From Couchioplanes azureus (GTDB lineage Bacteria; Actinomycetota; Actinomycetes; Mycobacteriales; Micromonosporaceae): a DNA stretch of 64,000 nt. The stretch is taken from the NCBI RefSeq assembly GCF_014648355.1, contig NZ_BMQY01000002.1, positions 62,001-126,000 of the forward strand, written 5' to 3'. Shown one piece after another: positions 33,820 to 42,916 of this stretch; position 1 is the first letter of the stretch; every line of letters begins with the position of its first letter. Under the pieces are notes generated by a model that saw only the letters and a list, made by a program, of their open reading frames with translations, was not told where the DNA came from and did not search any database. A program made the translations under genes and the position numbers.

Positions 33820-33849
33820 TTCGGCTACGGCTTGTTCGGCTACGGCTTG
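33820..33849 (-). repeat. 15-bp tandem duplication across a stop codon
   Basis: TTCGGCTACGGCTTG occurs twice in tandem (33820-33834, 33835-33849). The second copy contains the TAG stop of the S1 protease gene, so the first copy repeats the end of the gene and its stop in the 3' region. Confidence 0.9.
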
Positions 33850-34694
33850 GTGAGCAGGCAGCCCGGCAGGTTCAGGTCGATCGCCCGGCTGCTGGTCAGG
33901 CAGGTGGTGAACCAGTAGGTCTGCTGGCCGTAGCTCTGGCCCTGGTAGGCCCGGGTGGTCCCGTCGGCGGCGACCTCGCAGGGGTTGTTCAGCGTGCACA
34001 TCTCGCCGTCGTCGTTGCCGGTGTTGTTGATCCCGACGATGCGTCCCGTGCTGTCGTCCACGATCGGGGACCCGGAGGTGCCGTGAATGGTGTCGCACGC
34101 GGAGTCGTAGCGGATCGAGTCCCGCCACGTCCACTGGTCCTCGCGCAGCGTGTCGACGAAGGTGTCGACCTTGCAGTTCCAGATCCGCTTCCAGTAGCTG
34201 GACGGGATGGTCATCGAGCTACCGGGGGCCGGCCGGGTGCTCGACAGGGTCAGCGCGGTCGCGCCGTAGCGGCTCTGGATCGAGGCGTACGTGCTGGTCA
34301 GCCGGTACAGGGTGACGTCTGTGCCGGTCATCGTCGCGTACAGCACGCGGTCGGCGCGGAGCGTACCCAGGGCACCGCCGGTGCTGTCGAGCAGCGTGCC
34401 GGAGCGGCTGCTGGCCCGGTTCTGCACCACCTGTCCGGCCGGGATGAAGCCGCGCTCGTAGCAGTGCCCGTTGGTGAGCATCATCGCCCGGTCGGAGCTG
34501 ACGGAGTTCGGGTACCGGACCAGGGCGGCGGAGCAGTTGCTCAGCTTGATGGTCGACGCCAGCGTGACGGCGCGGGCGGCCAGCGCCGGGGCGGCTTCAG
34601 CGGGGGCGGCGTGAGCGGGGGCGGTGCCGGCGAGCAGGCTGCCGGCGGCCGCGAGGGAGGCGGCGCCGAGGACGAGCGCACGACGTAGGCGCAT
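33840..34694 (-). CDS. Secreted trypsin-like serine protease (S1)
   Basis: A 284-residue exported protease. Signal peptide to about residue 30 (ending AHA-AP). Triad residues are His77 in TNGHCY, Asp126 in GTDVTLY and Ser207 in GTSGSPI; several cysteines can form disulfides. It belongs to the chymotrypsin-fold trypsin-like group of actinobacteria rather than to the alpha-lytic proteases, since no long pro-region is present. GAAGGG lies eight bases before the ATG at 34694. Monocistronic. Confidence 0.88.
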   Translation of the reverse strand: MRLRRALVLGAASLAAAGSLLAGTAPAHAAPAEAAPALAARAVTLASTIKLSNCSAALVRYPNSVSSDRAMMLTNGHCYERGFIPAGQVVQNRASSRSGTLLDSTGGALGTLRADRVLYATMTGTDVTLYRLTSTYASIQSRYGATALTLSSTRPAPGSSMTIPSSYWKRIWNCKVDTFVDTLREDQWTWRDSIRYDSACDTIHGTSGSPIVDDSTGRIVGINNTGNDDGEMCTLNNPCEVAADGTTRAYQGQSYGQQTYWFTTCLTSSRAIDLNLPGCLLTKP

Positions 34695-35027: not shown

Positions 35028-36995
35028 GTGACCAACGGCGTCCGGGTGCCGCCCGCTGCCCATGGGCTCGGCGAGCATCTCGACCTTGCACACCGCCTGA
35101 TCGACCTCTTCCCGCCGGGTGACGAGCGGCGGGACGTCTGGCGGGGCCGGATCGCGCAGGTCCACGACAGACTGGCGGACCCGCGGCTGCGGCTGGCCGT
35201 CATCGGCGAGTTCTCCAGCGGCAAGACGACATTCGTCAACGCCCTGCTCGGCGAGGAACTGTTCCCCGCCTCGGCCGTACCGACGACGACGGCGGCCGTG
35301 CGGATCTCCTATGGACCGCGGCCGGTGGTCCGTGCCCGGTTCCGCGACGGCACGCAATGGTCGTCGAACCCGGCCGACGTCGCGGACGGCGCGATCCGGG
35401 AGACGCTGCGGCGGCTCACCACCGGCGACGACCTGGCCTCCCGGGTCACCGCCGTGGAGCTCGACCACGGCGCGCCGGTGCTGCGCCAGGGGCTGGTCAT
35501 CGTCGACACGCCGGGAACCAACGACGACGCCGGGCACTCCGAGACCGCCCGGCGCGCCGTTCTCGACGCGGACGCGGCGGTGGTCGTGCTGAACGCCCGT
35601 ACCCTGGTGCCCGCCTCGCTGAGCTCCTTCCTGGTCGGCGCCCTGGATCCGCACCTGCTCGGCCGGTGCGTCTTCGTCGTCACCCGGATGGACGAGGTGG
35701 ACGCCGAGGACCACGACCGCGTGCGGGCCGACGCCGTGCAGCGGGTCCGCACGGCGCTCGGGGTGGCGGAGCCCGCCGTCGCGTTCGGCGCACCCGGGGC
35801 GGTGGTCCGTCTCCGCCGCGGCGTGCCGCTCAGTGCCGCGCAGGCGGAATGGGCCCCCCAGTTCGACGCACTCGCCGACTGGCTCGCGGTGACCGTGGGC
35901 GAGCGCCGCCCGGCGGCCGTCGCCGATACCGCCCTGCGTCTGCTCGACGACCTGCTGTCCGGGCTCGACGACGGACTGACCGAGGACCGGGCGCAGGCGC
36001 GCCGGCAGGAGTCCGCCCTGGACGCTGCCCAGATCGCGGATCTCGACGACTTCCTGCGCAGGCACCACAAGGCCGCCTCCCGGGCGCTGCGCGAAGCCGC
36101 GTCGGCCGCCCGGGCGGCCAGCCACAAGGTGCACGCCGCCGCGCTGAGCCGGACGCGGGCCGAGGTGCGCTCGGCGATCGCCGGCTGCCCGAACACCTCC
36201 GCCCTGGAGGACGCGCTGCGCGGCACCGTACCGCAGCTCGTCCGCACGCAGCTCGACGCGCTGGCCGGCCGGATCGCCGGGGAGGCACGGCCGATCTTCG
36301 CCGACGGCCTGCGCACCGCGACCGGCGTCGTCCAGACCGCGTTCGACCGCGAGTACCACCGGCTGGAGCGGGCCGGCCGGCCGCGGGCGGCCGCGCCACC
36401 GGTCACCCGGATCTCGCCGGATCAGCTCGTGCTGACCGAGACGTTCGGCGCCGCCGTCGCCGTGGCCACCGCCGACCGGAGCCGCGACAAGATGGCCTTC
36501 GGATGGGGTGCGGCGTCCGGCGCCGCCATCGGCACGATGATCGTGCCGGGCGTCGGCACGGTCATCGGCGGGTTCCTCGGCCTGGTGGCCGGCGCCGTCT
36601 TCTCCCGCGACCTGGCCGAGGTACGAGCCGAGGCGACGACCAGCGCGGTGACCACCACCGAGGCGGTGTTCGCCCAGGCCGCCACCCAGCTCGACGCCGC
36701 CGTGGCCAAGACCGCGCACCGCGCCGAGCTGGCCCTGCGCGATCACCTCGGCTGGTACCGGGACAGCTATCGGCAGACGGTCGACCGCATCCGCAGCGAT
36801 CAGCACCGCCGCCGGGAGGAACTGCGGCGGCGTGCGGAGCAGCTGGAGCGCGCGAGGACGGAAACGGCCACGCACCGCGCCCGGCTGGAGGCGGAGCGCG
36901 TGCGCCTGGCCACCGGCGGCCCGGCGCCCTCCGCCCCGGGCCGCCACCGCCCCACCACCATCCCGTCCGAGCCGCGAAGGGCGATGACGTCATGA
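35028..36995 (+). CDS. Dynamin-like GTPase 1
   Basis: A 655-residue large GTPase. G1 loop GEFSSGKTT at 60-68, switch-I region PTTTA, G3 DTPGTND at about 160 and G4 TRMDEVD are all present, so GTP hydrolysis is plausible. Helical arms follow, then a glycine-rich hydrophobic hairpin (about 492-525, GAASGAAIGTMIVPGVG...) suited to membrane insertion and a final charged coiled coil. GGAGG eight bases before the GTG. First of four genes linked by 4-base overlaps. Bacterial dynamin-like proteins remodel or protect membranes; this one's role is unknown. Confidence 0.88.
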   Translation: MTNGVRVPPAAHGLGEHLDLAHRLIDLFPPGDERRDVWRGRIAQVHDRLADPRLRLAVIGEFSSGKTTFVNALLGEELFPASAVPTTTAAVRISYGPRPVVRARFRDGTQWSSNPADVADGAIRETLRRLTTGDDLASRVTAVELDHGAPVLRQGLVIVDTPGTNDDAGHSETARRAVLDADAAVVVLNARTLVPASLSSFLVGALDPHLLGRCVFVVTRMDEVDAEDHDRVRADAVQRVRTALGVAEPAVAFGAPGAVVRLRRGVPLSAAQAEWAPQFDALADWLAVTVGERRPAAVADTALRLLDDLLSGLDDGLTEDRAQARRQESALDAAQIADLDDFLRRHHKAASRALREAASAARAASHKVHAAALSRTRAEVRSAIAGCPNTSALEDALRGTVPQLVRTQLDALAGRIAGEARPIFADGLRTATGVVQTAFDREYHRLERAGRPRAAAPPVTRISPDQLVLTETFGAAVAVATADRSRDKMAFGWGAASGAAIGTMIVPGVGTVIGGFLGLVAGAVFSRDLAEVRAEATTSAVTTTEAVFAQAATQLDAAVAKTAHRAELALRDHLGWYRDSYRQTVDRIRSDQHRRREELRRRAEQLERARTETATHRARLEAERVRLATGGPAPSAPGRHRPTTIPSEPRRAMTS

Positions 36996-38740
36996 CCGAG
37001 AAGACAGCAACCGCGACCGGGACCCCCGACGGCACGGTGAGCGCCGCCGCGTTGGGCGCCTGGCTGGCGCGGGCCCGGCGCCTGACGGACGGCTCCGCCC
37101 TCGCCGGGGTGGCCGACGACCTGAACGCCATCCAGCGGCACACCACCCGCCCGGCGTTCCGCGTCGTGGTGGCCGGCGAACGCGGCCGCGGCAAGACCAC
37201 ATTGGTCAACCAGCTCCTGGGCGGGGACGTCGTCGCCGCGGACTCGCCGGTCCCGGTCCTGGTGGTCGGGGACACCACGGACTGGCTGGAGGTCCGGCGG
37301 GACGGCGCGGCCGAGACCGGCCCCGCCACCGCGGCGGCCTGGGCGTCGCTGCGCGAACGGCCGCCGGACGAGGGCAGCGTGGTGCGCCGCGGCACGCCGC
37401 ACGCCCTGCTGACCGGCCTCGACGTCGAACTGCTGGACACGCCCGGCTGCAACGACGCCGACCCGGACGTGCCGGCCAGCGTGCGGACGGCGGTCCGCGG
37501 CGCCGACGCGACGCTGATGGTGCTGTCCGCCACCGCCGCCCTGAGCCTGACCGAGACCCGCTTCCTGCGCGAGTTCGTGCTGGCCGCCGACATCCCGCTC
37601 ATCGCCCTGGTGCTCAGCCGGCTCGACCAGGTGGAGGCCGACGAGCGCGACCAGGTGCTCGCGTACGTCACCAGCCGCGCCGCGGGAATCTCGCCGCGGC
37701 TGGCGGTTCTTCCCGGACCGGATCTGCGGGACGGGCACGGCGCCGGTCCCGTGGCGAGCTGGCTGACCGCGAACGCACGCCACGGCGATCGGGTACGGCT
37801 GCGTACCGAACAGCTCAGCGCGCAACTCGCCCGGGTCATGGGCGGCCTGGCCGACCTGGCCACCACGGCGGCGGACGCCGCCACGCTCGACGCCGACACC
37901 CGCGCCGAGGACGTCGCCAAGGCCCGCCTCGCGCTGACCGACGAGTTGCTGGCCTTCGACGAGATCCGCGTCGAGTTGCGGCGACGGCAGAACGCGGCGG
38001 CTGCCCGCTTCCGCGGTCACCTGGCGGGCACGAGGGAGCGGCTGGCCGAGATCCTGCGGTACGAGCTCTACCACCATCCGGAGCCGCGGACCTGGTGGGA
38101 GCGCGACCTGCCGTACCGGTTGCGCCGGGAACTGGCGACGGCCGCCAAGGAGTACGAGAAGTCGCTGCTCGGCGGCGTCCAGCTGGACCTGCAGTGGTTG
38201 CGCCGGCAGCTGGCCGAGCGGTTCCGGATCGAGCCGTCCGGCCTCGACGTGACGCTGACCAGCCTGCGCGCCCCGCAGGTCGACCCGGACGACCTGAAGC
38301 TGGGCGATCTGCGGAACCGGCGGATCGCGTACCGGGTGGGACCGCTCGGCCTGGCACTGCTCATCGGCACCCTGAGCGCGGGATTCTTCCCCTTCGCCTC
38401 GCTGGGCGCGACCGCGGCCGGCGTCGTCTTCGGCGAGGTGCTGCTCCGCGGCGCGGTCGACAACCAGCGCCGGGTGGCCGAGCGCCACCTCGCCGGGCTG
38501 GTCGACCGGGCGGTGAGCGAGTTCGGCCTGGGCGTGGCCGAGGCGATCCGCTCCCTCTACGACCAGCTCGTCGACGAGGCCGTGCAGCAGCGCAAGCAGT
38601 GGTACGCGGACCGCGAGGCGGCCTTGAGCGCGGCACCGCCCGCGGACCGGACCACCCGGTGGACGGAGATCGCGGATGCGGCCACCCGGCTGCGCGACGA
38701 GATCGAATCGACCCTGACGACGGACGGGACCGAGGCATGA
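36992..38740 (+). CDS. Dynamin-like GTPase 2 (atypical switch I)
   Basis: A 582-residue protein. G1 GERGRGKTT starts at residue 62, G3 is DTPGCND and G4 SRLDQVE, but where the other two GTPases have PTT the sequence reads SPVPVLV, so the conserved switch-I threonine that positions magnesium and water is missing. It may bind GTP without efficient turnover. Long helical region, then two hydrophobic segments near 449-490 (LGLALLIGTLSAGFFPF). ATGA overlaps upstream and downstream. Probably pairs with one of its neighbours, as tandem bacterial dynamins do. Confidence 0.85.
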   Translation: MTEKTATATGTPDGTVSAAALGAWLARARRLTDGSALAGVADDLNAIQRHTTRPAFRVVVAGERGRGKTTLVNQLLGGDVVAADSPVPVLVVGDTTDWLEVRRDGAAETGPATAAAWASLRERPPDEGSVVRRGTPHALLTGLDVELLDTPGCNDADPDVPASVRTAVRGADATLMVLSATAALSLTETRFLREFVLAADIPLIALVLSRLDQVEADERDQVLAYVTSRAAGISPRLAVLPGPDLRDGHGAGPVASWLTANARHGDRVRLRTEQLSAQLARVMGGLADLATTAADAATLDADTRAEDVAKARLALTDELLAFDEIRVELRRRQNAAAARFRGHLAGTRERLAEILRYELYHHPEPRTWWERDLPYRLRRELATAAKEYEKSLLGGVQLDLQWLRRQLAERFRIEPSGLDVTLTSLRAPQVDPDDLKLGDLRNRRIAYRVGPLGLALLIGTLSAGFFPFASLGATAAGVVFGEVLLRGAVDNQRRVAERHLAGLVDRAVSEFGLGVAEAIRSLYDQLVDEAVQQRKQWYADREAALSAAPPADRTTRWTEIADAATRLRDEIESTLTTDGTEA

Positions 38741-40716
38741 GCGGCAGGAATCAGACCGGCTACGAATGGGTCGGCCAGGTGCGCGGCGAGCTGCTGCGCC
38801 TGGTGGACGTCATGGGCGAGGTCGCCGGGGACCTGCGGCTGCCGCAGCTCTCCGCGTTCGACGAGCTGCGCGACCGGGTCCGCAGCGACGAGTTCGTGGT
38901 GCTGGTGGCCGGCGAGTTCAAGACCGGCAAGAGCACCACGATCAACGCCGTGCTGGGCGACAAGGTGCTGCCGGCGTACGCGACGCCCACGACCGCGGTG
39001 TTGAGCGTCGTGCGGTGGAGCGAGGAGAAGGCGGCCCGGCTGTACGAGCTGGACCCCGCCGCGCCGAACGGTCGGTCCGAGGTCGCCAAGCCGGTCCGCA
39101 TCGAGGACCTCACCCACTACATCACCATCGACGAGAACGACCCGGAGAGCGAGAGCCCGTGGGGCCTGGCCGAGATCGACTGGCCGCTGGAGCTCTGCCG
39201 CAACGGGGTCACCGTGGTCGACTCCCCCGGCCTCAACGAGCATCCGCACCGCAGCCGGGTGACCATGGGGTACATGGGACGCGCCGACGCGATCGTGTTC
39301 GTCTCGGACGCCACCCGCGTGCTCTCGGCGAGTGAGCAGGACTTCCTCAACCTGCACATCAAGGCGCAGGGCCACGAGGACATGTTCTTCGTATGCAACC
39401 GGATCAACTTCGTCGACGACGATCCGGACGAGCGCGAGCGGGTACGCCACCGGGTGCGCCGGATCCTGTCGCAGAACTGGGACGCCGGCCCGCACCGGGT
39501 GTTCTTCGTCAACGCGAAGGCCGCGCTGGTCGGCCGGCAGACCGGAGACGCCGCCGCCGTGGCCGGTTCCGGCATCCCGGAGTTCGAGCGGGAGCTGGAG
39601 CGCTTCCTCAGCAACCAGCGGGCCCGCGTCAAGATCGTGCCGCCGGCCCGCCTGCTGCAGCGGATGGTGGCCGAGGCGCGGGATGCCATCGACCGGCAGA
39701 TCATGATGCTCGACCAGAACGTCGAGACGTTGCGCGACCGCTACGAACGCGCACAGGAGCCGTTGCGGCGGCTGGAGCAGGAACGGCGGCTGATCGTCCA
39801 GCTGGTCGACGAGCAACTCGCCAAGGCCCGGATGGAGGCCGAGACGTCGGCGCAGCGGATGCTGGCCGAGGCGGCGTCGTCCTGTGCCGGGTGGGCCCGT
39901 GCCGCCGAGCGCACCCACAAGATCACCGCGAATCCGATCACCGCGCGGAAGCAGACCGAGGCGGCCACCAAGGAGCTCGCCGACCGGCTCGGCGCCAAGC
40001 TCCAGGAGCACTTCGCCACGTGGCAGAAGGACACGCTCATGCCGCTGCTCGAGCGGCACATGGAGCGCCTCGAGCAGGAGATCGACGGGAGCCTGCGCCA
40101 CTTCGTGGCCGGGGTCGACGACGTCAAGCTGTCCTTCACCGCGGGCGCGACGGCGGACGGCACGGCGGTCGCGCAGCCGTCCGCCCTGGAGCGGACGGCC
40201 GCCAGCGCCGTCGCGCTCGTCCTGCTGAGCCCCGGCATGGCGCTGGTCGGCGCCCGGTTCGGTTTCAAGCAGGTGCTGCTCGGCGTCGGACCCCAGCTCG
40301 GCGTCGCGGTGCTCGGCGTGCTGGTCGGCCTGGGACCGGTCGGCCTGGCCCTGGTGCTGGCCGGCGCGGCGTTCGTCCAGCTGGTCATCGGCGTGGACAA
40401 GGCGAACGAGCACCTGGCCGCCAAGGTCGCGGAGAAGGTCGCGGACGACATCCGCAGCGGGTCGGCCGAGCAGACGGCGAAGATCGGGGTCGAGGTGCAG
40501 GCGGCCCTGGACGCGATCCGGGCCGGCATCGACGACAGCCTCGGTGCCCAGCTGGCCGCCGTACGCCACGACGTCGAGGACGTGCTGCAGGAGCTCACCC
40601 GCGGCCAGGGCGGCGCGGCCGAGATGAAGCAGCGGCTCGCGGGCCACCGTGCGCGGCTCGCGGAGGTCGACGCCGGGGCGGTCGACATCATCACCCAGTT
40701 CGCGGCGATCCCGTGA
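38737..40716 (+). CDS. Dynamin-like GTPase 3
   Basis: A 659-residue GTPase. G1 GEFKTGKST at residue 59, PTTA in switch I, G3 DSPGLNE; the G4 position reads NRINF, with Asn in place of the base-recognising Asp, so nucleotide specificity may be relaxed. A clear coiled coil (NVETLRDRYERAQEPLRRLE...) spans roughly 325-375 and a strong hydrophobic block at 488-553 can cross or wedge into the membrane. Coupled by ATGA upstream and GTGA downstream. The three GTPases differ too much from each other to be recent duplicates. Confidence 0.88.
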   Translation: MSGRNQTGYEWVGQVRGELLRLVDVMGEVAGDLRLPQLSAFDELRDRVRSDEFVVLVAGEFKTGKSTTINAVLGDKVLPAYATPTTAVLSVVRWSEEKAARLYELDPAAPNGRSEVAKPVRIEDLTHYITIDENDPESESPWGLAEIDWPLELCRNGVTVVDSPGLNEHPHRSRVTMGYMGRADAIVFVSDATRVLSASEQDFLNLHIKAQGHEDMFFVCNRINFVDDDPDERERVRHRVRRILSQNWDAGPHRVFFVNAKAALVGRQTGDAAAVAGSGIPEFERELERFLSNQRARVKIVPPARLLQRMVAEARDAIDRQIMMLDQNVETLRDRYERAQEPLRRLEQERRLIVQLVDEQLAKARMEAETSAQRMLAEAASSCAGWARAAERTHKITANPITARKQTEAATKELADRLGAKLQEHFATWQKDTLMPLLERHMERLEQEIDGSLRHFVAGVDDVKLSFTAGATADGTAVAQPSALERTAASAVALVLLSPGMALVGARFGFKQVLLGVGPQLGVAVLGVLVGLGPVGLALVLAGAAFVQLVIGVDKANEHLAAKVAEKVADDIRSGSAEQTAKIGVEVQAALDAIRAGIDDSLGAQLAAVRHDVEDVLQELTRGQGGAAEMKQRLAGHRARLAEVDAGAVDIITQFAAIP

Positions 40717-41696
40717 GCACGCCCCGGTTCCGTCGCCGGCTGTGCCTGGTCACCGACATCGAGCGGTACAGCCGGCACAGCAACCGCGAGCAGGTGGACG
40801 CGCAGCGCCGGCTGACCCGGGTCATGCAGGACGCGTGCGCACGAGCGGGCATCGTCTGGCCGCGCCCGCAGAAGCAGGGCGACGGGCAGCTGATCGTCAT
40901 GCGGCCCGGGCTGGACGAGACGCACGCGGTTCCCGCGCTCGTTCTCGGCCTGCGGCACGGTCTCTACGAGACCAACCGGGACGGCGGCCTCTTCGGCCGG
41001 CTGCGCCTGCGGGCGGCCCTGGCCGAGGGAATCATCGCCACCGGAGCCAACGGGTACGTGGGTGAGGCGGTCATCGAGGCCTGCCGGGTGGTCGACTCGC
41101 CGCAGATGCGGGCGGCGCTGGTGGACGACGACTCGATCGATCTCGCCCTGGCCGTGACCGACGAGCTGTTCCAGGCGGTGGTCAGGCCGGGTGACTCCAC
41201 GCTGGACGGTGCCGACTTCACGGCGACCGCGGTGGCCGTGCCCGGCAAGAACTTCCGCAGTAGTGCGTGGCTGCACACGCCCCGCCCGGGCCCCGCACCG
41301 GCGCCGCCCGGGCCGGCCCCGGCGGCCACGGCCGGGATGATGCTGCGGGTCCGGCGCAGCGGCGCCTCCCGGGCCGTCGTACCGGGCCTCGGGGCGGTCG
41401 CCGGGTGGGGCGCCGTCGGATACGGCGGCCATGCCACGGTCGGGGCCGAGGTGCACGCGGACCTCACCCACGACCCTTCGCCCCAGGCCCCGCACGGCCC
41501 GCCGCCCGGCACCGCCGCATCGGGCCATCCCCACGACACTGTGACGGTGCATCTCGACGTGCACGTGAACGCGGACGTCGAGATGCACCACCACTTCGAG
41601 CCGTACGCCGGCCCTGACCTGTCACCCGACATCGGTCACGTACACCACGACGGCGGTGTCGACGACGGGCCCGGCCCGGCCGGCCACCATTGCTAG
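40713..41696 (+). CDS. Nucleotidyl-cyclase-like protein with His-rich tail
   Basis: A 327-residue protein whose first 170 residues follow the class III adenylate/guanylate cyclase pattern: metal-binding Asp15 in TDIERYS and Asp57 in QGDGQL, then RAALAEG and the dimer-face helix GYVGEAVIEACRVV. In active cyclases this helix reads VNxAAR; here the Asn is Ile121 while Arg125 remains, so catalysis may be lost or altered. A Pro/Ala linker, a short glycine-rich hydrophobic stretch and a histidine-dense tail (HPHDTVTVHLDVHV, MHHHF, HVHHD, GHHC) follow. GTG overlaps GTPase 3. Its stop shares CTAG with the convergent gene. Confidence 0.75.
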   Translation: MSTPRFRRRLCLVTDIERYSRHSNREQVDAQRRLTRVMQDACARAGIVWPRPQKQGDGQLIVMRPGLDETHAVPALVLGLRHGLYETNRDGGLFGRLRLRAALAEGIIATGANGYVGEAVIEACRVVDSPQMRAALVDDDSIDLALAVTDELFQAVVRPGDSTLDGADFTATAVAVPGKNFRSSAWLHTPRPGPAPAPPGPAPAATAGMMLRVRRSGASRAVVPGLGAVAGWGAVGYGGHATVGAEVHADLTHDPSPQAPHGPPPGTAASGHPHDTVTVHLDVHVNADVEMHHHFEPYAGPDLSPDIGHVHHDGGVDDGPGPAGHHC

Positions 41697-42916
41697 CCGG
41701 CGCGAGAGCCCGACCGGCCGCCGCATCCGTAGGGACAAGGCGCGGAGAACTGCGCGAAGTGCGGGCGGTCGGCGCCGCCGAAGGTGGTGAACTCGCCGCC
41801 CACCGCGATCCGGCGCAGGGCCGGGTTGGCGTCCATGGTGAGGACTCCCCACTTGCCGTTGCTCTTGGGGTTCCAGGCGAGCAGCGCGCCGGTCCCGGCG
41901 TTCCATGCCGCGAGCTTCGGCTGGGTGCGCAGGTCGGCCGGGCACCACGAGGTGGCGGTGCGCGACCGCTGCGGGCAGGCGACGGTGAAGTGCCCGCCGG
42001 CGTACACGGTCCCGTCCAGGTAGGTGATCGCCTGTACGTCGCCGTCCGTGACGCTGCTCCAGACCAGGCCGCCGTCCGGGCGGTAGGCGGCGACCCGGCC
42101 GCCGGGGCCGGCCAGCCCCGCGTACACCGTGTCCGGTGCGACGGTGAGCGCCATGACGCCGTACGGCGTGGCGGGCCGGAACGTGGTGTCGACCTTGCCG
42201 TCGGCCAGCCGGAGCGCGGCCAGCCGGACGGTGCCGTCGGCCCCGTTGAGGCGGTGGAACGAGCCGCCGACGTACAGCCGGGAGCCGGCCACCGTCAAGG
42301 CCTTCACCTCTTTGTCGGCGCCGCTGGTGAACGCGGTGTCCCGGGCGCCGTCGGCGAGGCGGAACGCCGCCAGGTTGCGGGCCGCGCGTCCGTCCACCGC
42401 GCTGAACTCCCCGCCGAGGAAGAGCCGTCCGCCACCCACGGCGAGCGCGCGCCCCTCGCCCGTCACCGTGTGCCGCAGGGAGCCGACGGCGCCGGTCTGC
42501 AGATCGATGCCGGCGAGGCCCGCGCGAGGCTGACCGGCGACGGTGGTGAACTTGCCGCTGACGTACAACGACCCCCCGAACGCGGTCATCGCGAAGACGG
42601 TGCCGTTGGTCGCCGGCGCCCACGGCAGCAGCTGGCCGGTACGGGCGTCCAGCGCGGCGAGGCGTTTGCGCGGCACGGACCGTCCGTCCACGATGGCGTT
42701 GCGGAAGCTGCCGGCCACGTACACCGTGGATCCGGCGTACGCGCTGGCGTAGACCAGGCCGTCGAAGCCGACCGAGCGGGCCGGGACGACCGACACCAGC
42801 GGCGTCGCCGCGACGGCGGCGGTGGGAGTGCTCGTCGCGGCGAGCACCGCGGCGAGCACCAGTCCGAGGTGGCGCCGCTGCGGTAGGGCACGGCGCGCAA
42901 TAAAGGCTAAACGCAT
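41693..42916 (-). CDS. Secreted beta-propeller protein (delta-60-like repeats)
   Basis: About 407 residues. Signal peptide from the ATG at 42916 (basic ARRALPQRRH, hydrophobic core, AVAA). The body is a run of repeats with the pattern VYVGGSFxxxxG and AAxxLADGxVDTxF, as in delta-60 and similar propellers found on actinobacterial surface proteins. Six to seven blades can be picked out. C-terminal cysteines (CPYGCGG). No catalytic motif. The stop overlaps that of the cyclase-like gene by four bases. No clear ribosome site. Confidence 0.75.
   Translation of the reverse strand: MRLAFIARRALPQRRHLGLVLAAVLAATSTPTAAVAATPLVSVVPARSVGFDGLVYASAYAGSTVYVAGSFRNAIVDGRSVPRKRLAALDARTGQLLPWAPATNGTVFAMTAFGGSLYVSGKFTTVAGQPRAGLAGIDLQTGAVGSLRHTVTGEGRALAVGGGRLFLGGEFSAVDGRAARNLAAFRLADGARDTAFTSGADKEVKALTVAGSRLYVGGSFHRLNGADGTVRLAALRLADGKVDTTFRPATPYGVMALTVAPDTVYAGLAGPGGRVAAYRPDGGLVWSSVTDGDVQAITYLDGTVYAGGHFTVACPQRSRTATSWCPADLRTQPKLAAWNAGTGALLAWNPKSNGKWGVLTMDANPALRRIAVGGEFTTFGGADRPHFAQFSAPCPYGCGGRSGSRAG

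What the first reader, a model, noticed from the sequence alone, without database searches (positions are those of the whole stretch)
35028..41696. Four-gene operon: three distinct dynamin-like GTPases plus a cyclase-like protein
Seen: three large GTPases (655, 582, 659 residues), each with a G1 loop and hydrophobic membrane segments, followed by a protein with a class III nucleotidyl-cyclase pattern; all four joined by ATGA/GTGA overlaps. Known: bacterial dynamins often work as tandem pairs (DynA/DynB, IniA/IniC, LeoA/LeoBC) in membrane fusion, division or stress. A trio coupled to a nucleotide-cyclase-like partner is not one I recognise. Inference: a membrane-remodelling device gated by nucleotide sensing, perhaps a stress or antiphage system.
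Basis: partly seen in the sequence, partly recalled or inferred. Interest (0 to 1): 0.75.

Follow-up and report, generated by a model that had tools for sequence, protein, structure and literature searches.

The report
Cyclase-coupled three-dynamin operon in actinobacteria
A rare set of four actinobacterial genes, three different membrane-shaping dynamin GTPases followed by an enzyme that looks built to make a cyclic-nucleotide alarm signal, keeps the same order in unrelated genomes and is probably an undescribed alarm-triggered membrane response, most likely a defence or self-destruction device.

Summary
Window 35028-41696 encodes three divergent bacterial dynamin-like proteins (D1, D2, D3) and a class III nucleotidyl-cyclase homologue (CYC), joined by 4-bp overlaps. 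Five of the six true D3 orthologues found (the window plus four genomes of one other-family genus, probably Streptomyces) have exactly D1-D2-D3-CYC; the sixth keeps D1-D2-D3 with another fourth gene. Two quartets add a PycTM-like small membrane protein, three a convergent Crp-type cyclic-nucleotide-binding gene. The set is rare (4/374 in that genus; 1/301 in the window's family) and patchy. CYC belongs to an un-modelled actinobacterial cyclase family (140/251 genomes) repeatedly next to Crp-type cNMP receptors, caspases, NACHT proteins, Hsp70 and other dynamins, the company of conflict systems. Metal aspartates and one catalytic arginine are kept; purine-selecting residues and the catalytic Asn are not. 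CYC has a His/Asp-rich tail shared by dynamin-linked members. Best reading: a Pycsar-like signalling head fitted with a dynamin trio as membrane effector. Defence function, product and wiring are inferred; no experiment exists and no defence island flanks it. I found no description of a dynamin-cyclase system in the searchable literature.

The parts
35028..36995 (+). D1: bacterial dynamin-like GTPase, 655 aa, complete G1/G2/G3/G4-type motifs, glycine-zipper hydrophobic segment near residues 493-530
   Evidence: Pfam Dynamin_N 4e-23; orthologues L087, L119-L121, L015
35205..35228 (+). D1 P-loop GEFSSGKT
   Evidence: motif table
36992..38740 (+). D2: divergent dynamin-like protein, 582 aa; P-loop present in the window, switch-I Thr missing, G4 without Lys; likely weak or regulatory GTPase
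   Evidence: Pfam Dynamin_N 3e-8; AF2 model hits BDLP/IniA; motif table
37175..37198 (+). D2 P-loop GERGRGKT
   Evidence: motif table
38737..40716 (+). D3: BDLP-type dynamin-like protein, 659 aa, with bacterial dynamin helical domain
   Evidence: Pfam Dynamin_N 2e-24 and PF21808 1e-17; PDB 2j68 9e-40
38911..38934 (+). D3 P-loop GEFKTGKS
   Evidence: motif table
40198..40371 (+). D3 hydrophobic paddle-like region (residues 488-545), predicted membrane insertion
   Evidence: hydropathy
40713..41696 (+). CYC: class III nucleotidyl-cyclase-like protein, 327 aa
   Evidence: profile vs PDB cyclases 9e-5, AF2 + Foldseek CyaC 6e-8
40713..41282 (+). CYC cyclase homology domain (residues 1-190): metal Asp15 and Asp57, Gln53 at the adenine-Lys position, Gly114 at the adenine-Asp position, Ile121 for the catalytic Asn, Arg125 kept
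   Evidence: family alignment and profile alignment to 3mr7/Ma1120
41466..41696 (+). CYC His/Asp-rich C-terminal tail (18% His)
   Evidence: all five quartet cyclases share such a tail; dynamin/Hsp70-linked relatives enriched, p=5e-7, relatedness not corrected

Best explanation
A cyclic-nucleotide-signalled membrane response module of the conflict-system type. CYC, when triggered (possibly through its His/Asp-rich tail), dimerises and makes a cyclic mononucleotide, probably not a standard cAMP-cyclase product judging by its base-selecting positions. The signal, or CYC itself by contact, releases a hetero-oligomer of three dynamins: D1 as the competent GTPase, D2 as a degenerate regulatory partner, D3 as the BDLP-like membrane-inserting subunit, which remodels, seals or breaches the membrane to protect or kill the infected or damaged cell. 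In sister loci a Crp-type receptor and a PycTM-like membrane protein probably read the same signal. Shown: gene order, fold families, conservation, neighbours, motif status. Inferred: catalysis, product, trigger, assembly, outcome.
For: Exact order D1-D2-D3-CYC in five of six true D3-orthologue loci, three of which were found by D3 alone; each member is the reciprocal best match of its counterpart. CYC is the best conserved member between families (46-48% vs 29-32% for the dynamins), so it is not a passenger. PycTM-like gene after CYC in L087 and L119 (weak library scores in these two; PADLOC PycTM 8e-8 in the related L060 protein); convergent Crp-type cNMP-binding gene in L119-L121. Across 46 CYC loci of the family chosen only by CYC similarity: Crp within 5 genes in 24 (the window genome has only 4 PF00027 genes), dynamin in 7 (0.6 expected, p=2e-6), caspase in 9. 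The receptor phosphate cassette GE-x-PRSA is intact in 31/34. Further neighbours are Peptidase_C14, CHAT, NACHT, DO-GTPase and Hsp70-WD40, as in the actinobacterial conflict systems of PMC7159879, where cNMP cyclases are common.
Against: The window copy has no adjacent Crp, PycTM or recognised defence gene. The catalytic Asn is missing and cyclase activity is untested. No cNMP-binding domain is recognised in D1-D3, so how the dynamins would read a diffusible signal is unknown. D2 and D3 GTP motifs are degenerate. G259 has the trio with another fourth gene. No phenotype is known.
Confidence: 0.5

Rival explanations
1. An envelope-stress or developmental membrane-remodelling operon, like Streptomyces DynA/DynB or mycobacterial IniA/IniC, in which the cyclase tunes dynamin activity; no defence role.
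For: D2 and D3 relatives outside the quartet occur as plain two-gene dynamin pairs without cyclase (L122-L126, L128, L016-L018); most bacterial dynamins are operon pairs with division, stress or repair roles (PMC6104087). No defence genes were recognised beside the window copy.
Against: Very patchy distribution (4/374 of one genus, 2/68 of the window's genus carry D2) and different chromosomal sites in one genus argue against a housekeeping role; the cyclase family's other partners are caspases, CHAT and NACHT proteins.
Confidence: 0.27
2. CYC is a catalytically dead or nucleotide-binding regulator that senses a nucleotide and scaffolds the dynamins.
For: The catalytic Asn is replaced (Ile121) and the purine-selecting Lys and Asp are Gln and Gly; some relatives also lose the Arg (L049, L050, L067). 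PMC7159879 reports inactive cNMP cyclase domains in such systems.
Against: Both metal Asp residues and the Arg are kept in the window and in the quartets; family members sit beside intact cNMP receptors.
Confidence: 0.17
3. A true Pycsar system (PycC making cUMP or cCMP) whose effector happens to be a dynamin trio.
For: PycTM-like neighbours (PADLOC PycTM 8e-8 in L060, 2e-4 in L119); Crp-type receptors score against PycTIR models; class III cyclase fold.
Against: No CYC tested has a PADLOC PycC hit (window and relatives, E up to 1, up to 0.01). The Crp neighbours' scores come from the shared cNMP-binding domain. The EaPycC CTP residues F100/R142/Q144 (PMC11224242) correspond by position to V13/Q53/Q55: only the last agrees.
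Confidence: 0.05
4. Chance adjacency of a cyclase gene with a dynamin operon.
For: The system is rare.
Against: Order conserved between two actinobacterial families in five loci, with 4-bp overlaps in the window; 12-fold excess of dynamins near the cyclase family.
Confidence: 0.01

Closest known systems
Bacterial dynamin-like protein pairs (Nostoc BDLP, Cj-DLP1/2, DynA/DynB, IniA/IniC)
   Same: Dynamin_N G domain, helical trunk, operon arrangement, D3 closest to BDLP
   Different: Three divergent paralogues instead of two, plus a cyclase; pair relatives in the same genera lack the cyclase
Pycsar (PycC + PycTM/PycTIR)
   Same: Class III cyclase-fold gene with membrane-type effector candidates; PycTM-like and Crp-type cNMP-binding neighbours in sister loci
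   Different: Cyclase not recognised by PycC models; main partner genes are three dynamins; base-selecting residues differ; product unknown
Actinobacterial NTP-dependent conflict systems (VMAP/vWA-MoxR, GAP1-N2 GTPase-HSP70, caspase systems; PMC7159879)
   Same: cNMP cyclase domains, Crp-like regulators, caspases, HSP70 and GTPases in multicellular actinobacteria
   Different: Dynamins are not mentioned in that paper (0 occurrences); no vWA/MoxR/VMAP core here
LeoA/LeoBC dynamin systems in PADLOC
   Same: D1 and D3 match LeoA/LeoBC profiles (best 1e-23 and 6e-27)
   Different: Three-gene dynamin set with cyclase; NCBIfam LeoA score 30 against a cut-off of 325
Class III nucleotidyl cyclases (CyaC, Ma1120, Rv1625c)
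   Same: Fold, two metal aspartates, catalytic Arg
   Different: Catalytic Asn and purine-selecting Lys/Asp replaced; His/Asp-rich tail

Membership tests
Bacterial dynamin-like proteins | Dynamin-type G domain (Dynamin_N) above curated cut-off | tested here: met
   D1 82.7, D2 34.1, D3 87.2 bits against a cut-off of 27
Bacterial dynamin-like proteins | Helical trunk with membrane-interacting tip | tested here: met
   D3 PF21808 64.7 bits; D2 fold match to BDLP with low-confidence tip; D1 hydrophobic gly-zipper segment only
Bacterial dynamin-like proteins | Competent GTPase motifs | tested here: inconclusive
   D1 complete; D2 lacks switch-I Thr and G4 Lys; D3 G4 is NRIN or FTYFD
Class III nucleotidyl cyclase | Cyclase homology fold | tested here: met
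   Profile hits 3mr7 and Ma1120; Foldseek CyaC E 6e-8
Class III nucleotidyl cyclase | Two metal-binding Asp | tested here: met
   Asp15 and Asp57 in the window and quartets
Class III nucleotidyl cyclase | Transition-state Asn/Arg pair | tested here: inconclusive
   Asn replaced by Ile121, Arg125 kept
Class III nucleotidyl cyclase | Makes a cyclic nucleotide | not testable with these tools
   needs an enzyme assay
Pycsar | Cyclase recognised as PycC | tested here: not met
   No PADLOC PycC match for window or relatives
Pycsar | Adjacent PycTM or PycTIR effector | tested here: inconclusive
   None in the window; PycTM-like in L087 and L119, weak scores there
Pycsar | cUMP or cCMP product | not testable with these tools
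   needs LC-MS
LeoABC | LeoA subfamily model above cut-off | tested here: not met
   NCBIfam NF041922 29.8 bits (D1) and 12.3 bits (D3) against 325
DynA (fused dynamin, Bacillus) | NCBIfam DynmDynABac above cut-off, two fused dynamins | tested here: not met
   9-68 bits against 1600; separate genes
Actinobacterial conflict systems (Kaur 2020) | vWA/MoxR/VMAP or GAP1 core in the operon | tested here: not met
   Only three dynamins and a cyclase in the operon; other members of the cyclase family do sit with caspase, CHAT, NACHT and DO-GTPase genes

The most novel reading that the evidence does not exclude
A new class of bacterial immune or cell-death system in which a non-canonical cyclic mononucleotide made by an un-modelled class III cyclase family switches on a three-component dynamin machine: the first nucleotide-signalled dynamins and a bacterial functional parallel to the antiviral Mx/GBP GTPases of animals.
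Probability: 0.3. Interest if true: 0.9.

Novelty: new variant of a known kind. Interest (0 to 1): 0.64.

Why it matters
If true, it would add membrane-remodelling dynamins to the effectors driven by cyclic-nucleotide alarm signals, and give a testable answer to what many actinobacterial dynamins are for. It also points to a large cyclase family with no Pfam, NCBIfam or PADLOC match (140 of 251 genomes sampled in one family, up to 9 copies) that sits beside cNMP receptors and cell-death proteases, so one biochemical assay could open a whole signalling network.

Tried and rejected
Full-length CYC as query failed twice in the genome search (low-complexity tail perhaps) and found nothing by peptide patterns; the 190-aa domain worked. 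P0004 and P0005 have no Pfam, NCBIfam or PADLOC match alone. A PDB hit to a viral phosphoprotein (E 0.07) is low-complexity tail noise. Plasmid search: no D3, one distant CYC. Literature searches for dynamin with Pycsar, cyclase or conflict systems gave no description (three papers that hold both 'dynamin' and 'Pycsar' were not opened; open-licence papers only). Chance adjacency rejected. PADLOC hits of window neighbours look like generic ABC-transporter and beta-galactosidase matches, not defence systems. L122-L126 and L128 looked like D3 relatives but are two-gene pairs without cyclase; L127 and L129 are other two-dynamin arrangements.

Full report
OBSERVATION. Codon-position composition marks all four as coding, including the odd C-terminal tail of CYC. 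Flanking genes are on the other strand on both sides: a secreted protein that looks like a trypsin-type protease upstream (33840-34694, by eye) and a secreted repeat protein that overlaps CYC's end by 4 bp downstream (41693-42859). The operon therefore stands alone.

THE DYNAMINS. All three carry Dynamin_N above Pfam's cut-off, and D3 also the bacterial dynamin helical domain. D3's nearest solved relative is Nostoc BDLP, E 9e-40. D2 is so divergent that a model was useful: a moderate-confidence AF2 model (pLDDT 68) gives BDLP, IniA and the Campylobacter dynamin pair as best folds. They are not recent duplicates: each is closer to its counterpart in another family than to its neighbours. D1 has intact GTPase motifs. 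D2 lacks the switch-I threonine and the G4 lysine, and its G259 counterpart has lost the P-loop lysine. D3's G4 is degenerate. So there is at least one likely motor and one probable regulatory pseudo-GTPase. Hydrophobic segments mark D3's tip and a glycine zipper in D1.

THE CYCLASE. Alone, CYC hits nothing. Its domain (residues 1-190), however, has relatives in 140 of 251 genomes of the window's family, and a profile of 27 of them hits class III cyclases of known structure (3mr7 E 9e-5; Ma1120). The AF2 model has pLDDT 96 and matches CyaC, Cya2 and Rv1625c. Both metal aspartates (15, 57) are kept. The adenine-selecting Lys and Asp are Gln53 and Gly114; the catalytic Asn is Ile121; Arg125 remains. 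From general knowledge, some bacterial class III cyclases without the canonical Asn are active, so activity is plausible but unproven, and the base is unpredictable. By position relative to the metal Asp, the EaPycC CTP residues F100, R142 and Q144 (PMC11224242) correspond to V13, Q53 and Q55; only the last is shared.

CONSERVATION OF THE QUARTET. A D3-orthologue profile was run over 374 genomes of the genus of G429 and 395 of the class. Scores split into a high group (over 700 bits: the window, G429, G740, G864, G907, and G259 from the earlier family search) and a low group (about 200-300 bits). Five of the six high-group loci read D1-D2-D3-CYC in that order. The sixth, G259 of the window's own genus, has D1-D2-D3 followed by an unrelated 509-aa gene. 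Most of the low-group loci (L122-L126, L128, L016-L018) are ordinary two-gene dynamin pairs without cyclase. The cyclase is the best conserved member between the window and the other genus (46-48% against 29-32%). The four sister loci lie in at least three different surroundings. The window's family is Micromonosporaceae, because L083, Dactylosporangium sp. AC04546, matches contig G122:C1 in length and content; the genus of G429 is probably Streptomyces from its size and genome sizes (inference). Caveats: the first look of these searches scores only a few candidates per genome, so prevalence is a lower bound; G864 and G907 are near-identical in the proteins, so the independent count is about four. 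The window, G429 and G259 built the profile, and G429 was noticed because its cyclase region was fetched; G740, G864 and G907 were found by D3 alone and are the cleaner test (3/3 with D1, D2 and CYC).

THE COMPANY THE CYCLASE KEEPS. In 46 loci chosen only by similarity to CYC, a Crp-type cNMP-binding regulator lies within five genes in 24, a caspase-type protease in 9, a dynamin in 7 and Hsp70 in 6. The window's genome has only four PF00027 genes and nine Dynamin_N matches in 7.6 Mb, so these are large excesses (dynamins 0.6 expected, p 2e-6, relatedness not corrected). The receptors' phosphate-binding cassette is intact in 31 of 34. Other neighbours are CHAT, NACHT, DO-GTPase and Hsp70-WD40 proteins and PycTM-like 2TM proteins. 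Two quartet loci, L087 and L119, carry a PycTM-like gene right after CYC, and L119-L121 carry a convergent Crp gene. A second, only distantly related set of large dynamins is also joined to CYC: three in L043, two plus Crp in L045/L083. Dynamin-cyclase coupling may thus have arisen more than once.

THE TAIL. All five quartet cyclases end in a His/Asp-rich low-complexity tail, with HHxDP-like repeats of varying number in the sister loci. Cyclases near dynamins or Hsp70 average 27% His+Asp in the tail, the others 10% (p 5e-7, relatedness not corrected; groups assigned by hand). The others often end in G/N-rich motifs instead. I read the tail as a partner-specific adaptor or a metal-binding switch (inference).

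MECHANISM. My best reading is a signalling head (cyclase, triggered by an unknown cue) coupled to a three-part dynamin effector that acts on the membrane, with outcome either sealing or lysis; sister loci add a receptor-type regulator and a small membrane protein. Shown are families, order, conservation and neighbours. Catalysis, the messenger, how dynamins read it, and defence as the purpose are inferred. The main weakness is that D1-D3 have no recognised cNMP-binding domain, and the window copy lacks the Crp and PycTM-like partners.

KNOWN OR NEW. Bacterial dynamins usually come as operon pairs (PMC6104087). cNMP cyclases and Crp-like regulators are described in actinobacterial conflict systems (PMC7159879), but that paper has no occurrence of 'dynamin'. 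Pycsar couples a class III cyclase to PycTM or PycTIR (PMC11224242), but CYC fails the PycC models. No paper describing a dynamin-cyclase system was found (open-licence library only). I file it as a new variant of known kinds: membership in Pycsar, LeoABC and DynA is not met; membership in the dynamin and class III cyclase superfamilies is met.

Noticed in passing
L043-L106: An actinobacterial class III cyclase family with no Pfam, NCBIfam or PADLOC match, up to 9 copies per genome, sits beside Crp-type receptors in about half of loci and beside caspases, CHAT and NACHT proteins.
   Followed up: partly
L043 531-8625; L083 3442-10849: A second, only distantly related set of very large dynamin-like proteins (774-857 aa) is followed by the same kind of cyclase, once as three dynamins and once as two plus a Crp gene.
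   Followed up: partly
L015 7303-8832: In G259 the dynamin trio is followed by a 509-aa protein without any Pfam or PADLOC match in place of the cyclase.
   Followed up: no
L085 9998-17408 (Actinomadura chibensis); L044; L060: Cyclase with Hsp70-like protein, two DO-GTPase-like GTPases and dynamins in one cluster, part of the set divergent in L044 and L060; resembles HSP70-GTPase conflict systems but with dynamins.
   Followed up: partly
L120/L121 CYC tails: HHxDP-like repeat number differs (13 and 22 units) between two cyclases that are 96% identical in the domain, so the tail evolves quickly.
   Followed up: no
L067 559-2625: Hsp70 fused to WD40 repeats next to a dynamin pair and a cyclase.
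   Followed up: no
G000:C4:231789-233782 (L020); G000:C12 (L019): The window's genome has further dynamin loci: a tandem pair, and a cluster with an Hsp70-like gene, both without the cyclase.
   Followed up: no
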